Shown here one piece after another: positions 5,392 to 11,667 of a stretch of DNA of 64,000 bases (position 1 is the first letter of the stretch; every line of letters starts with the position of its first letter). This stretch comes from Chitinophagaceae bacterium. Its GTDB lineage: Bacteria; Bacteroidota; Bacteroidia; Chitinophagales; Chitinophagaceae. The position numbers and the translations under genes were made by a program. The stretch lies in the NCBI GenBank assembly GCA_023957125.1, contig JAMLHL010000011.1, positions 1 through 64,000 on the forward strand, written 5' to 3'. The notes beneath the pieces were generated by a model. That model worked only from the letters and a program-made list of their open reading frames with translations. It was not told the origin of the DNA and ran no database searches.

Positions 5392-5751
5392 ATGTTAATT
5401 GCACTCCTCCTCACCACCACGCTCCTCATCCTCTCTAAATTCCTGGATTGCTATACCACATCCCGGTATATGAAAATCGTGAGTATGGAACGGAACCGGC
5501 TGGCGCGGAAGTGGATGTACAGATATGGAAAAAACATGGTGATATGGGTGGTGTTTGCCTTATTGGTTATTATCAGTTTATTCAGTTTTTGGTGGGTATG
5601 GAAAGTCCGAACGGCTTGGTATTGGCAATGGGGTTTTATCATTTCAGGGCTATTGTTGAGCTATGCCCAGTTTTCCGTAGCTCATAGTAACTACTCGGGA
5701 AAATTAAATTATTTCACCCGCTGGCTGATAAAAAGAAAATACTATCAATAA
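5392..5751 (+). CDS. Small 3-TM membrane protein directly after csm5
   Basis: 119 residues, starting on the base after the csm5 stop, so it is very likely translated from the csm mRNA. Three hydrophobic segments are clear: residues 1-18, 49-70 and 77-97, with basic loops (KIVSMERNRLARKWMYRYGKN) between the first two and a basic tail (RWLIKRKYYQ). The first TM ends LDCYTTSRYM, which recalls the LDxxTT start of DUF5658-like small membrane proteins, but the match is weak. No CARF, nuclease or pore motif is recognised. It could be a membrane partner or effector of the Csm system, or a passenger gene. It precedes a promoter-dyad region, so it ends the csm operon. Confidence 0.75.
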   Translation: MLIALLLTTTLLILSKFLDCYTTSRYMKIVSMERNRLARKWMYRYGKNMVIWVVFALLVIISLFSFWWVWKVRTAWYWQWGFIISGLLLSYAQFSVAHSNYSGKLNYFTRWLIKRKYYQ

Positions 5752-5753
5752 GA

Positions 5754-5848
5754 CTCCTTTTCATAAGGAGAATTAATGTTATTATTTCCTTTTTAAAAGG
5801 AAAAATTTAATAATAATTTCCTTATTACAAGGAAATTATTTAGTTTTG
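5754..5848 (+). promoter_or_regulatory. Promoter with three phased dyads upstream of the AAA/DUF4143 gene
   Basis: Three inverted repeats share the core CCTT-n5-AAGG: 5754-5770 (CTCCTT/AAGGAG), 5785-5803 (TTTCCTTTT/AAAAGGAAA) and 5812-5840 (AATAATTTCCTT/AAGGAAATTATT, a perfect 12-bp stem with 5-base loop). Their centres fall at 5762, 5794 and 5826, exactly 32 bp apart, about three helical turns. Directly after the third comes TAGTTTTG (5841-5848), a full match to the Bacteroidota -7 element TAnnTTTG. The ATG lies 4 bases further on, so the transcript would be nearly or fully leaderless. The layout suggests cooperative binding of a dimeric regulator over the -33 region; the regulator is unknown. 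Confidence 0.75.
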
Positions 5849-5852
5849 TTGC

Positions 5853-7169
5853 ATGAAGGGGCTAATAAAGGAAATATTGATATCCCATAACGAGCGTTTT
5901 AAAGCTCCGGAATATAAGAGATCGGTTCAACTCAATCCTGATCTTAATAAGGTGCAAACCATTACCGGTCCCAGAAGAGCGGGTAAATCTTCCTTATTAA
6001 AACTGGGCATACAGGAACTTTTAAATCTGGGAACGGGCTGGGATAAGATTTGCTATCTTACCTTAGAAGATGAGCGTTTAAGAGCTGATGTTTTTGAACC
6101 GGACGAAATTTTACAGGCCTTCGCAGAATTATATCCGGCAAATCCTTTGTTAAAAGGGGTGTATTTCTTCTTTGATGAAATTCAATATTTGAAGAACTGG
6201 GAACCGTTTATTAACCGGATACACGAGCAAATAACCCGAAAAGTGGTGATTACGGGTTCCAACAGTAAGTTACTGCATACAGAAGTAGCCTCCGTGTTAA
6301 GGGGACGGGGGCTACCGGTTGAACTGCTACCTTTATCTTTTAAAGAATATTTAAATTGGCAGGCGTTGCCCTTTTCAGAACAGGGAAGTGGTAAAATACA
6401 GATAATTGCAGCTTTTAATAAATATCTAACCGGGGGTGGCTACCCGGAGACGGTTTTTGAGGATGTTCCAATCCACCTGAAATTGCTGCAGGAATATTTT
6501 AATACTGTTTTATATCGTGATATCATCGAGTTGAATCAAGTCAGCAATTTTAGATATTTACGTTATCTTTTTCATAGAATAGCCGACAATACCGGTAAGC
6601 CTACCGGATTGCACAAGATTTACCTGGAGCTGAAAAGCCGGGGTTATGCAGTTAGTAAAGATAAGCTTTACCAAATGGCTGATCTGGCGGAGGCCGTTTA
6701 TCTGTATAAAAGAATCAGTCGTTTTGAACCTTCCTTCGTAAAACGGGAAAACACAGACAAGAAATGTTATTTTATTGATAATGGCTTGTTGCGGGCTTTA
6801 GGCAGTCAATTTTCTGAAAATAAGGGAATGTTATTAGAGAATCTGGTTTTTTGGCAACTCTACAGACAATACGGGAATATTTACACCACAGACATTTATT
6901 ATTATCAGGACAACTCTCACGAATGCGATTTCATTCTGTTTAAAGAAGGAACACAGGCGCTTCCCATACAGGTTTGCTGGGAAATGAGGAATGAAAGCAC
7001 CAAAACAAGAGAAATCAGGGGATTACTCAAAGCCTGCGAGGTATCTGAGAGCAAAAAGGGCTTAATAATAACTTACGATACGGAAGACAGCTTTGAAGAA
7101 AAAGGCATCCACATATCAGTTATTCCTGCCTGGAAATGGTGTGGCTTAGAAAAAGATTTAATGAATTAA
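5853..7169 (+). CDS. AAA ATPase with C-terminal DUF4143 domain
   Basis: 438-residue ATP-binding protein of the AAA_14/DUF4143 type, common in Bacteroidota and often autoregulated; its biochemical role is not settled. Walker A is GPRRAGKSS (residues 39-47), Walker B YFFFDEIQYL (about 104-113) with D108-E109, followed by sensor-like VVITGSNSKLL and the RGRGLPVELLPLSFKEY block typical of the family. The C-terminal half has the DUF4143 pattern including ECDFILF...LPIQVCWEM, resembling a PD-(D/E)XK fold. The gene has its own promoter with three dyads and is followed after 1 base by a small ORF that overlaps the CARF-HEPN gene, so it heads the second operon of the CRISPR locus. It may be a regulator or a passenger. 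Confidence 0.93.
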   Translation: MKGLIKEILISHNERFKAPEYKRSVQLNPDLNKVQTITGPRRAGKSSLLKLGIQELLNLGTGWDKICYLTLEDERLRADVFEPDEILQAFAELYPANPLLKGVYFFFDEIQYLKNWEPFINRIHEQITRKVVITGSNSKLLHTEVASVLRGRGLPVELLPLSFKEYLNWQALPFSEQGSGKIQIIAAFNKYLTGGGYPETVFEDVPIHLKLLQEYFNTVLYRDIIELNQVSNFRYLRYLFHRIADNTGKPTGLHKIYLELKSRGYAVSKDKLYQMADLAEAVYLYKRISRFEPSFVKRENTDKKCYFIDNGLLRALGSQFSENKGMLLENLVFWQLYRQYGNIYTTDIYYYQDNSHECDFILFKEGTQALPIQVCWEMRNESTKTREIRGLLKACEVSESKKGLIITYDTEDSFEEKGIHISVIPAWKWCGLEKDLMN

Positions 7170-7170
7170 A

Positions 7171-7323
7171 ATGAAACCCATCCCCTCCGGTCTGCTTTTT
7201 ATCAAAGCTAAAACCGCGTCTTATCTTTCAGAATTAACACAGGCAAAAAGAGTATTTTCGTTGAAAGATATGAGTGATAAAGAAGGGCTTATTCAAGAAA
7301 TAAAAAAAAATTGTCAATCATGA
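7171..7323 (+). CDS. 50-residue ORF coupled to the CARF-HEPN gene
   Basis: Short ORF (begins MKPIPSGLLFIKAKT, ends QEIKKNCQS) fitted exactly between its neighbours: its ATG comes 1 base after the ATPase stop and its TGA overlaps the ATG of the next gene (ATGA at 7320-7323). Such tight packing on both sides supports real translation, at least as a coupling device. No known family is recognised; it is basic, with no TM segment or Cys pair. It could also be a leftover of a larger decayed gene. Confidence 0.5.
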   Translation: MKPIPSGLLFIKAKTASYLSELTQAKRVFSLKDMSDKEGLIQEIKKNCQS

Positions 7324-8531
7324 GTAGAAAAGTTTTTTTGTCATTTTTGGGTACCAATGATTATAAACCATGTAAGTACGTCTCTGGTGAAAAAGGAGAA
7401 AGTCGAGTCGTGAAATATGTTCAAGATGCCATTTTGAATCTCTATTGTCAGAATTTCACTAAAGATGATTTCGCATATATTTTTCTAACTCAACCAGCTG
7501 AAAATAAAAACTGGGAAACCTTGCAAACAGCAATAGGAACAAAATCTTTTAATATTGTTCCTGTCACTAATATTCCTGAAGGATATTCAGAAACAGACAT
7601 TTGGAAGATTTTTGAAATTGTATTTAACTATTTGTCTGATAACGATGAAGTGATATTAGATGTAACACATGGTTTTCGATCTCTTCCAATGTTAGAGATC
7701 GTCTTACTCAACTATGCGAAATCTCTAAAGAATATAAAAGTAAAATACATCCTATATGGAGCATTCGAAGCTTTGGGGTCACCCCGTGATATTGATGAAA
7801 GAATTCCCAACCCGGAAAATAGAAAAGCTCCCTTATTAGATATAACCGCTTTTTCTGCTATACAAGCATGGACATTTGGAGCCGAAAGCTTCATTCAAAC
7901 GGGAAACACAAAGACTATTACAGAATTGTCCCTTGAAAATATAAAACCGATTCTTAAAGAAAGTAAAGGCTCTGACTTCACCGCTTCAAATATTCGGAGT
8001 TTAATGAAATCATTAGAACAAATCGAAACAACAATAAAAACCAATAGAGGTAAAACTATTAATCACGGAAATTGGATCCAAACAGCACATGAAGCTTTGA
8101 GTAATTTAACCATAGAAGAAAGGCAAGTATTTGCTCCTGTTAAACCTATTTTAAAGCAAGTAGAAGATAAACTTGCAAGCTTCAATCAGATGCCACATTG
8201 GGAAGCCTCGGTGGATTGGTGTATAGAGCACGGGTTGGCCCAACAGGGAATTACTCAATTACAGGAAGGGATTATAAGCTTTTTATGTGAACAACATGGT
8301 TTAAAATCCAATGACCTCACAGATAGAGAAATAGTTACTCAGGCTTTAAATATTTATGATAAAAGTAAAGATGAATCAGAATGGCATAAACCAGCATCAG
8401 AAAACAAAGAAAAAGTTATTGAAATTATCAAATCTAAGTTTGTCGAAAAACACAAGGGCAACTTCTCGAGACTTTCTTCTCTGAGAAATGATATAAAACC
8501 ATGGGGGGTACAGAGACGATGCGATAAATGA
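7320..8531 (+). CDS. CARF-HEPN effector of the TM1812/Csx1-Csm6 type, frameshifted in the HEPN motif
   Basis: 403 residues as read. The N-terminal CARF domain starts RKVFLSFLGTNDY and carries the conserved DVTHGFRSLPML loop, as in the TM1812 (TIGR02221-like) family that senses cyclic oligoadenylates made by Cas10. The C-terminal part is helical, as expected for an HEPN RNase. It should end with the catalytic motif RN-x3-H; here the frame reads RNDIKPWG and stops 30 bases on. Removing one A from the AAAA run at 8495-8498 gives RNDINHGGYRDD and an open frame to 8976. So the allele lacks the catalytic His and should be RNase-dead, unless frameshifting or slippage restores it. The ATG at 7320 is preferred because it overlaps the upstream stop. 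Confidence 0.88.
   Translation: MSRKVFLSFLGTNDYKPCKYVSGEKGESRVVKYVQDAILNLYCQNFTKDDFAYIFLTQPAENKNWETLQTAIGTKSFNIVPVTNIPEGYSETDIWKIFEIVFNYLSDNDEVILDVTHGFRSLPMLEIVLLNYAKSLKNIKVKYILYGAFEALGSPRDIDERIPNPENRKAPLLDITAFSAIQAWTFGAESFIQTGNTKTITELSLENIKPILKESKGSDFTASNIRSLMKSLEQIETTIKTNRGKTINHGNWIQTAHEALSNLTIEERQVFAPVKPILKQVEDKLASFNQMPHWEASVDWCIEHGLAQQGITQLQEGIISFLCEQHGLKSNDLTDREIVTQALNIYDKSKDESEWHKPASENKEKVIEIIKSKFVEKHKGNFSRLSSLRNDIKPWGVQRRCDK
8495..8508 (+). other. Frameshift site in the HEPN active-site codons
   Basis: AAAA (8495-8498) followed by CCAT and a run of six G (8503-8508). One extra A explains the break: with three A the codons read R-N-D-I-N-H-G-G-Y-R, the HEPN consensus. A change in the G run instead would leave K-P-W in place of N-H, so the A run is the likelier site. 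Both runs are short, so slippage is possible but not strongly expected. Confidence 0.75.
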
Positions 8532-8628
8532 TGGGTCGCAATTCAAAAAGAAATTGGCTGAAATTTTTGATGAGTTTAAAAATATTAGAGGAAGAAAGGA
8601 AGCAGAGGAAGAAAAATCAAAGTCTTTC

Positions 8629-8976
8629 ATGCTCCTCAACCTCTCCAACCACCCCTCCGCCAACTGGCCACCCGGCCAATGGAACACGGCAATAGAACAA
8701 TTCGGCTCCGTTCAGGATTTGTCTTTTCCGCAGATTCACCCTAACGCAAATGCTGATGAAATAGAACAATTAGCTGAAGAATACGAAACCAAAGTCCGGC
8801 TATTAAATCCATCTGCTATACACATCATGGGTGAAATGACCTTCACTTATAAATTAGTTAATAGATTAAAAGCCATCGGTATTTCCTGCATAGCCAGCAC
8901 CACAGAAAGAACCACCGAAGAAGAAAACGGCACAAAAACCTCCGTTTTCAAATTCGTAAGATTCCGATCTTACTGA
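8629..8976 (+). CDS. Small type III-associated domain beginning MLLNLSNHP, in the frame of the broken HEPN C-terminus
   Basis: 115 residues from the internal ATG. The same frame is open back through the lost HEPN tail (NHGGYRDD...), so in the unbroken gene this domain would be the C-terminus of a CARF-HEPN fusion of about 551 residues. In the present allele it could be expressed alone from this ATG or from TTG at 8554. The pattern is a first strand MLLNLS, a long helix, then a strand-turn-helix (IHIMGEMTFTYKLVNRL) and strand (ISCIASTTER), which looks Rossmann/CARF-like. I recognise this as a small protein type seen next to type III loci but cannot name the family. A ring-nuclease-like role is only a guess from fold pattern and context. 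Confidence 0.7.
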   Translation: MLLNLSNHPSANWPPGQWNTAIEQFGSVQDLSFPQIHPNANADEIEQLAEEYETKVRLLNPSAIHIMGEMTFTYKLVNRLKAIGISCIASTTERTTEEENGTKTSVFKFVRFRSY

Positions 8977-10678: not shown

Positions 10679-11667
10679 ATGGATATCATCATCAACTCCT
10701 ACGGCGCCACGCTTCAAAAGGAAAACAATCTGTTTGTGATCACCACGACCGAAGGCAGGCAATCCTTTCCTCCCGATGTAGTGAAGACCATTAGCCTTAG
10801 CAAAAGTGCCCGGGTTACCAGCGACGCCATCATGCTGGCGATTCAAAATCAGGTAGACGTATTATTTGTAAATGATACCGGGCAACCGGAAGGGAGGATA
10901 TGGAGTATAAAATACGGTTCTATCAGTAATATCCGGAAGGCACAGGTAAATTTCCTGTATTCTCAGGCTGCGGTCAACTGGGTGAAAAATCTCATTATCA
11001 CTAAAATTGACCGGCAGGCGGCCCTGCTGCTGGGATTGCAGCCGGAAATGACCGACAACCTGAAACTGCATAATATTTTTAAATCGGCCATTAACAGCAT
11101 GGAGGATTACAAAAAAAAGATAGAAAAAACAGAAGGGGACTATATCAGCGATATCGACTCCTTCGTTACGGCTGGGAAGGCGCTGCCGGAAGAAAATATT
11201 TCCTCTGCTTAAGCAGCTTGTTACCCGAAAAGCTTCAATTTGAAAGTCGCGATCGTTTACCGGCAAAGGATCCCTTTAATGCCCTGCTCAACTATGCTTA
11301 TGGAATTCTTTACGGAAAAGTGGAGGGCGCGCTGATCAAAGCCGGTATTGATCCCTATGTGGGAATTTTTCACCGGGATGAATACAATCGCCCGGCCCTG
11401 GTTTATGATGTAATAGAAAATTACCGGGCGTGGACCGACTACGTAGTGTTTCAACTGTGTATTTCAGAAGCCATTCCGGATGAAGCATTTGAAACCACAG
11501 AAGACACCGGGGCTATCCGGTTGTTGCCCCTGGCCAAGCGGATTCTAATTCAATCGGTAAATGATTTCCTTAACGAAATTGTAACTATCGGTAAACCCCT
11601 GAGCAGGCTTTCACATATTGAATCCGATGCTCACCAGCTTGCCGCTTATTTTTTAAATAACGGATAA
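10679..11667 (+). pseudogene. cas1: Cas1 integrase, broken by a 1-base deletion near 11155
   Basis: Cas1 is the catalytic subunit of the Cas1-Cas2 spacer integrase. The N-terminal part reads from 10679 and stops at 11212; the C-terminal part is open in another frame. Adding one base near 11155 (ATC-CGA in place of ATCGA) joins them as ISDIRLLRYGWEGAAGRKYF, giving a normal length of about 329 residues. Expected catalytic residues are E in GWEG (11176-11178), H in VGIFHRDEY and D in VYDVIENYR. All three lie after the break, so the first fragment is inactive and a product started at TTG 11218 would lack the Glu. As written, adaptation should be lost. It is followed 4 bases later by the primase gene. 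Confidence 0.9.

What the first reader, a model, noticed from the sequence alone, without database searches (positions are those of the whole stretch)
5754..5848. Three CCTT-n5-AAGG dyads with exact 32-bp spacing over a leaderless promoter
Centres at 5762, 5794 and 5826 put all operators on the same DNA face. The third is a 12-bp perfect palindrome that touches the -7 box TAGTTTTG, and the ATG follows after 4 bases. Such regularity points to cooperative autoregulation of the ATPase-effector operon.
Basis: seen in the sequence. Interest (0 to 1): 0.68.

Follow-up and report, generated by a model that had tools for sequence, protein, structure and literature searches.

The report
Self-addressed operators of PDC-S01 ATPase genes
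Three evenly spaced palindromes over the start of an ATPase gene are real, and they belong to a widespread pattern in which genes of this very common but untested phage-defence candidate family carry private DNA tags, most often 32-33 bases apart, that each ATPase probably reads to control its own gene.

Summary
In detail: three CCTT-N5-AAGG dyads (centres 5762, 5794, 5826) fill the gap before an AAA_14-DUF4143 gene; the third abuts TAGTTTTG, 4 bp from the ATG. TTTCCTTN5AAGGAAA occurs twice in the 4.67-Mb genome, both here. The larger result is a family rule. In 295 non-redundant promoters of this family only lags 32 and 33 stand out (z 12.9, 12.3); 593 control promoters show nothing. Repeat sequence is private to each gene; the period follows the protein tree (32 v 23 bp: 3 changes, shuffled minimum 15). 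TTTCC-N9-GGAAA occurs in 14 of 350 family promoters and 0 of 604 controls; all 14 proteins share one recognition-helix signature in a predicted winged helix, across several phyla. In one chlamydial clade the dyad is centred on the -35 box. Best reading: each ATPase binds its own operators through its winged helix and represses itself; binding and repression are inferred, not shown. The family is PADLOC's PDC-S01, a very common, unvalidated defence candidate with a PD-(D/E)XK-like tail, here without the catalytic lysine. The papers searched did not describe its regulation.

The parts
5754..5770 (.). Dyad 1, CTCCTT-N5-AAGGAG (TCC-N9-GGA), centre 5762; a weaker version of the half-site
5785..5803 (.). 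Dyad 2, TTTCCTTTTTAAAAGGAAA, centre 5794
   Evidence: one of only two exact TTTCCTTN5AAGGAAA sites in the genome
5812..5840 (.). Dyad 3, AATAATTTCCTT-ATTAC-AAGGAAATTATT, perfect 12-bp arms, centre 5826
5841..5848 (+). TAGTTTTG, match to the Bacteroidota -7 box TAnnTTTG; 4 bp before ATG
   Evidence: an equivalent box lies next to the last dyad in relatives
5853..7169 (+). AAA_14 + DUF4143 ATPase, 438 aa (COG1373-type; PADLOC PDC-S01)
   Evidence: searches (PF13173 E 3e-31, PF13635 E 1.7e-23; PDC-S01 E 3.2e-97), model pLDDT 88
6558..6728 (+). Winged helix of the ATPase, residues about 236-292
   Evidence: secondary structure; fold matches
6657..6695 (+). Predicted recognition helix, residues 269-281 (signature SKDKLY, residues 268-273)
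6738..7166 (+). C-terminal PD-(D/E)XK-like domain; ExK replaced by Q373-V374-C375
7171..7323 (+). 50-aa ORF, 1 bp after the ATPase stop, overlapping the next start by ATGA; context only
7320..8531 (+). Csx1/TIGR02221 CARF-HEPN gene; possible downstream member of the transcription unit
8554..8976 (+). Csx20; context

Best explanation
The three dyads are DNA operators for the ATPase encoded by the adjoining gene. A dimer or higher oligomer of the ATPase binds each TTTCC-N9-GGAAA dyad through its central winged helix. Neighbouring units contact each other because the dyads sit about three helical turns apart (32 bp). The bound array covers the promoter and keeps the ATPase, and possibly the downstream csx1-csx20, at a low level. 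Nucleotide state or an unknown trigger would release the array. Shown: the array, its uniqueness in the genome, the family-wide 32-33 bp register, the link between period and protein clade, and the link between helix signature and half-site. Inferred: direct binding by the ATPase, cooperativity, repression, the trigger, and any control of csx1.
For: (1): in promoters of this family, lags 32-33 alone stand out (pooled z 12.9 and 12.3; shuffles never above -0.07 at lag 32; controls none). The signal appears separately in Bacteroidota, in a mixed non-Bacteroidota set with duplicates removed, and in Chlamydiae. Strong direct repeats at lag 32-33: 52/295 v 3/593, p 5e-23. (2): the period class (32 v 23 bp) tracks the protein tree, 3 changes against a shuffled minimum of 15, although half-sites differ completely. 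(3): TTTCC-N9-GGAAA in 14/350 family promoters and 0/604 controls; all 14 carriers have the [STG]K[DNT]xLY helix. After removing relatives above 70% ATPase-domain identity: median p 6e-9, worst of 100 orderings 2e-7. (4): Bacteroidales relatives (34% protein identity) keep the half-site, the 32-33 bp spacing and the 5-bp gap to the -7 box. (5): in one chlamydial clade the dyad is centred on -35 TTGACA with -10 at 16-17 bp (9 of 10 recognisable promoters; arms vary together), a position that would block RNA polymerase. (6): the site is unique to this promoter. (7): flanking genes differ on plasmids of many phyla, so the ATPase is the only constant partner.
Against: No binding or expression data. 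118 of 209 promoters showed no clear 32- or 23-bp array; many of those, in the EIK clade, have a single inverted repeat instead, and the set from the Aminicenantes phylum is weak (24% v 6%). Partial Mantel tests of winged-helix identity against operator similarity are mixed (p 0.014 in one homogeneous clade of 30, 0.25 in the 49-gene non-redundant set). Two further helix-half-site codes seen by eye failed a formal test. With relatives cut at 50% identity too few helix-class genes remain (median table 2 of 3 carriers). Shared descent of helix and operator, rather than repeated co-change, could explain part of the helix-operator link. In STAND proteins the winged helix can serve nucleotide switching rather than DNA binding (general knowledge).
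Confidence: 0.72

Rival explanations
1. The ATPase binds the array, but the main purpose is not transcription control: the array is an assembly platform, a self-recognition tag, or a partition- or iteron-like site.
For: Closest folds include DNA-bound Orc1/Cdc6 initiators, which bind arrays of repeats; the family is common on plasmids (352 records) and carries a nuclease-like domain.
Against: Arrays sit on the core promoter next to the start codon and in one clade centre on the -35 box. The gene is often chromosomal and embedded in defence loci.
Confidence: 0.12
2. Another DNA-binding protein, not the ATPase, reads the array.
For: Binding by the ATPase has not been measured; no tool result points to a specific other protein (searches show varying neighbours).
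Against: Flanking genes vary, half-sites are private to each gene, the period follows the ATPase tree and the half-site follows the ATPase recognition helix.
Confidence: 0.09
3. The repeats act as RNA hairpins (attenuator or processing sites) in read-through mRNA from the csm operon.
For: The region folds better than shuffles (z -3.94); the 119-aa ORF ends at 5751, just upstream.
Against: Direct-repeat arrays with few dyads occur too (L012, L014), a fixed 32-33 bp pitch has no meaning for hairpins, the chlamydial dyads lie over the -35 box and so would not be in the gene's own mRNA, and no T-run follows the hairpins.
Confidence: 0.05
4. Chance regularity in AT-rich intergenic DNA.
For: Single CCTTN5AAGG sites are common (85 per genome).
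Against: Triple spacing expected about 3e-8 times per genome; family-wide lag test.
Confidence: 0.01

Closest known systems
PDC-S01, single-gene phage-defence candidate (PADLOC; described in PMC12988326 as identified by guilt-by-embedding)
   Same: The protein matches the profile at E 3e-97; AAA ATPase fused to a PD-(D/E)XK-like domain; embedded here in a type III-A csm locus.
   Different: The two papers read here that count PDC-S01 treat it as a candidate defence gene; the passages seen do not discuss regulation. The private operators and their register are new. The clade of this protein lacks the ExK lysine.
Archaeal AAA+ ATPases SSO1545 (2fna) and PABY2304 (2qen)
   Same: Best structural matches over residues 15-318 (Z 17.2 and 16.9): AAA domain plus winged helix.
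   Different: I found no report of operator arrays for them; the C-terminal domain here was searched separately.
Autoregulated defence modules: AbiE (AbiEi antitoxin, PMC3985639, located but not read here), controller proteins of type II restriction systems (mentioned in PMC12255303)
   Same: A defence module whose own DNA-binding protein controls its promoter (comparison partly from general knowledge).
   Different: Those use a separate small antitoxin or controller. Here regulator, ATPase and nuclease-like domain would be one polypeptide, with a register shared over many phyla.
Archaeal Orc1/Cdc6 and origin recognition boxes
   Same: AAA+ plus winged helix (2qby, 2v1u); the gene-linked repeats are from general knowledge.
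   Different: No sign of origin function here; the sites lie on the promoter with private sequences and a fixed 32-33 bp pitch.
IniR of mycobacteria (PMC5760070)
   Same: A regulatory ATPase whose AAA domain is predicted to resemble SSO1545.
   Different: 818 aa, with MalT-like and separate C-terminal DNA-binding domains, and it regulates iniBAC; no PD-(D/E)XK-like tail described.

Membership tests
PDC-S01 / COG1373 (AAA_14-DUF4143) | AAA_14 P-loop domain | tested here: met
   PF13173 E 3e-31, residues 32-167
PDC-S01 / COG1373 (AAA_14-DUF4143) | DUF4143 region | tested here: met
   PF13635 E 1.7e-23
PDC-S01 / COG1373 (AAA_14-DUF4143) | Match to the PADLOC PDC-S01 profiles | tested here: met
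   PDLC04787 E 3.2e-97
PDC-S01 / COG1373 (AAA_14-DUF4143) | Embedded in a defence locus | tested here: met
   Between csm5 and csx1/csx20
PDC-S01 / COG1373 (AAA_14-DUF4143) | Protects against phage | not testable with these tools
PD-(D/E)XK nuclease | Fold of the C-terminal domain | tested here: met
   Domain model matches Can2 (E 5.8e-4) and McrC (9.7e-4); modest scores
PD-(D/E)XK nuclease | Catalytic ExK lysine | tested here: not met
   Q373-V374 invariant in A2 and C375 at the lysine position here; other clades read EIK/EVK
Autoregulatory operator array | Repeated dyads on the gene's own promoter, rare elsewhere | tested here: met
Autoregulatory operator array | Conserved in relatives with the same geometry | tested here: met
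Autoregulatory operator array | The encoded protein binds the sites | not testable with these tools
   needs a binding assay
Autoregulatory operator array | Binding changes transcription of the gene | not testable with these tools
   needs a reporter assay
Bacteroidota housekeeping promoter | -7 box TAnnTTTG | tested here: met
   TAGTTTTG 5841-5848
Bacteroidota housekeeping promoter | -33 TTG about 19-21 bp upstream | tested here: not met
   no TTG in 5812-5823, which is the left arm of dyad 3

The most novel reading that the evidence does not exclude
PDC-S01, one of the most common candidate immune genes, is a very large family of self-addressed ATPase switches. Each member carries a private operator and a matching recognition helix, and assembles on its own promoter in a clade-fixed pitch (32-33 or 23 bp). 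That assembly both silences the gene and serves as the sensor whose disruption during infection switches on the ATPase and, when embedded, the host defence operon around it.
Probability: 0.25. Interest if true: 0.88.

Novelty: new variant of a known kind. Interest (0 to 1): 0.72.

Why it matters
PDC-S01 is reported as the fourth most common defence system in prokaryotes (PMC12988326), with function and control unproven. A register shared over many phyla, private half-sites and a helix-linked motif give a direct, cheap test of what the protein touches. They would let operators be predicted for many of these genes and would explain how they can be embedded in defence operons without being expressed all the time. 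The many independent protein-operator pairs would also be a natural data set for winged-helix DNA recognition.

Tried and rejected
Genome-wide regulon: rejected; CCTTN5AAGG is not enriched and the longer dyad occurs only here. A common sequence motif for the family: rejected; half-sites differ, only the pitch is shared. RNA attenuator: disfavoured (see rivals). Mantel test for a recognition region: mixed. Codes for NSL(Y/F)-TTGTC and PKxxVSxY-TGGTAA seen by eye: not supported formally, because the non-redundant set keeps 4 and 1 genes. Leaderless start as a family feature: only 33 of 156 Bacteroidota family promoters have TAnnTTTG in the last 60 bp (controls 35 of 351), and 9 of the 33 have the box ending within 7 bp of the ATG. 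ATPase_2 (PF01637) as a sister-family control: only 6 loci found, 4 scored, no 32-bp lag, too few to use. Plasmid examples: 14 fetched, of which only a few show a clear array; archaeal Methanomethylovorans has lag 32 with z 4.1. The SSO1545 structure paper is not held. A first -35 script had a slicing error and was redone. The first redundancy filter favoured motif carriers and was replaced by random orderings.

Full report
Observation. They fill the 101 bp between a 119-aa ORF that ends at 5751 and the ATG at 5853. The third has perfect 12-bp arms and ends at the base before TAGTTTTG. Single sites are ordinary: 85 in the genome, against 207 for the reversed pattern. The triple is not ordinary, and the 19-bp form TTTCCTTN5AAGGAAA occurs twice in 4.67 Mb, both times here. 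Against shuffles the region scores z 7.4 for direct repeats, at lag 32, and z 4.7 for inverted repeats. A -33 TTG is missing, and the transcription start has not been measured.

Setting. Upstream is a type III-A csm set (cas10, csm2-csm5). The gene itself is AAA_14-DUF4143 and matches PADLOC's PDC-S01. Downstream are a 50-aa ORF 1 bp after the stop, then Csx1 (CARF-HEPN), whose start overlaps it by ATGA, then Csx20. An ATPase-csx1-csx20 transcript is therefore likely but was not tested.

The family rule. The nearest homologues (48-49% identity) and more distant ones do not share this motif, but many have their own repeats in the same place. In 107 family genes against 262 neighbouring control genes, 71% v 12% had a direct or inverted repeat with z above 3. 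The best lag is 32 in most of the strong direct-repeat cases. A test that ignores sequence, the match rate at each lag from 10 to 89, gave one main peak at 32 (z 10.4; controls negative). The result held in sets collected afterwards: a mixed non-Bacteroidota set with duplicates removed (lag 32 z 7.5, lag 33 z 6.5) and Chlamydiae (lag 33 z 11.1). It was weaker for the phyla of L047 and L054. Pooled over 295 promoters: lag 32 z 12.9, lag 33 z 12.3, next best 2.3. Two hundred dinucleotide shuffles of all sequences never exceeded -0.07 at lag 32. Controls (593 promoters) show nothing. A dyad-pair score run at every lag from 20 to 48 peaks at 32, 33 and 23.

Period follows protein. On a tree of 198 proteins the 32- and 23-bp classes need 3 changes among 90 labelled genes; shuffled labels need at least 15. 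Since the half-sites are unrelated, this says that something inherited with the protein sets the pitch. Common descent of the upstream DNA could add to this, but the pitch is kept where the sequence is not.

Half-site follows recognition helix. TTTCC-N9-GGAAA was found in 14 of 350 family promoters and in none of 604 controls. All 14 proteins have [STG]K[DNT]xLY at the start of the predicted recognition helix; about half of the genes with that signature have the exact motif. The carriers come from the genome of this window, Bacteroidales, Lentisphaerae (L047), Aminicenantes (L054), Chlamydiae (L271, L277, L278, L281) and the phylum sampled around L047 (L335). With relatives over 70% identity removed in random order, the median table is 6/12 v 0/210 (p 6e-9, worst of 100 orderings 2e-7); at 50% too few remain. 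In Bacteroidales the spacing and the 5-bp gap to the -7 box are also the same. In L047 the ATG follows the second dyad by 4 bp. A general Mantel analysis was mixed, and two other codes I saw by eye failed a formal test. I therefore rely on this one code.

Position on the promoter. In a chlamydial clade with the helix SPHTVxNYC, 9 of 10 recognisable sigma-70 promoters have the dyad centred on TTGACA, with the -10 box 16-17 bp away. The arms differ among species and mostly stay complementary (CCGTG/CACGG, CCATG/CATGG, GTGTG/CACAC). Controls show none (0 of 2 recognisable promoters). Binding there would block RNA polymerase, so repression is the likely sign. For the present gene, dyad 3 lies between where the -33 would be and the -7 box.

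Protein. The model (pLDDT 88) has an AAA domain, a winged helix (helices 236-245, 253-262, 269-281) and a C-terminal domain. Residues 15-318 match SSO1545 and PABY2304 best (Z about 17), then CED-4 and plant NLRs; Foldseek also lists Orc1/Cdc6 on DNA. The C-terminal domain alone matches Can2, McrC and, more weakly, Card1, a PD-(D/E)XK fold, with Q-V-C where nucleases have E-x-K. Both lysine-bearing and lysine-less clades show the 32-33 bp lag, so the operator rule does not depend on nuclease activity.

Known and new. PDC-S01 has been listed by PADLOC and counted in surveys; PMC12988326 reports it as the fourth most common defence in prokaryotes, found by guilt-by-embedding. The library searches for DUF4143, COG1373, SSO1545, PDC-S01 and related terms returned no account of its regulation in titles, abstracts or the passages I read; most hits were not read in full, the preprint that defined it is not held, and a subscription paper could exist. 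Autoregulation by operator arrays is an old idea. What is new is that one large ATPase family appears to carry it as private, pitch-locked operators across phyla.

Limits. Starts are the first ATG of each frame. Many genomes are draft MAGs. Sets share ancestry. Under half of the non-redundant promoters tested (91 of 209) have a clear 32- or 23-bp array by the thresholds used; others have one long inverted repeat or nothing seen. No experiment supports binding, cooperativity or repression.

Noticed in passing
window 5853-7169; L393 (Arcobacter cloacae pACLO); L394 (Treponema saccharophilum pTS1): The ATPase gene is embedded in defence loci: between csm5 and csx1 here, between cas3 and cas4, and between hsdR and a class I methyltransferase gene.
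   Followed up: partly
L012 (1501-2697, - strand), L014, L169 and relatives: A separate clade has head-to-tail 23-bp direct repeats with little dyad symmetry instead of 32-bp dyads.
   Followed up: partly
L058, L061, L063, L074, L087, L088 and relatives (EIK clade): Many members of the clade with an intact ExK motif have one long inverted repeat upstream and no tandem array.
   Followed up: no
L389 (Listeria seeligeri plasmid p60), upstream of 1204: A long palindrome, TACCATTATTTGAAGTTAACTTCAAATAATGGTA, over the promoter of a plasmid-borne member.
   Followed up: no
window 10679-11667: Cas1 is split between two ORFs (10679-11212 and 11218-11667) and may be interrupted or frameshifted.
   Followed up: no
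window 7171-7323: 50-aa ORF MKPIPSGLLFIKAKTASYL... between the ATPase and csx1; no family search was run on it.
   Followed up: no
window 5392-5751: 119-aa ORF of unknown function directly before the array; no Pfam, PADLOC or PHROG match and one weak sub-threshold NCBIfam hit to MurJ.
   Followed up: partly
genome G205 (locus L049, Gracilibacteria): DUF4143 genes there read with several in-frame TGA codons, as expected from a recoded TGA in that lineage (general knowledge).
   Followed up: no
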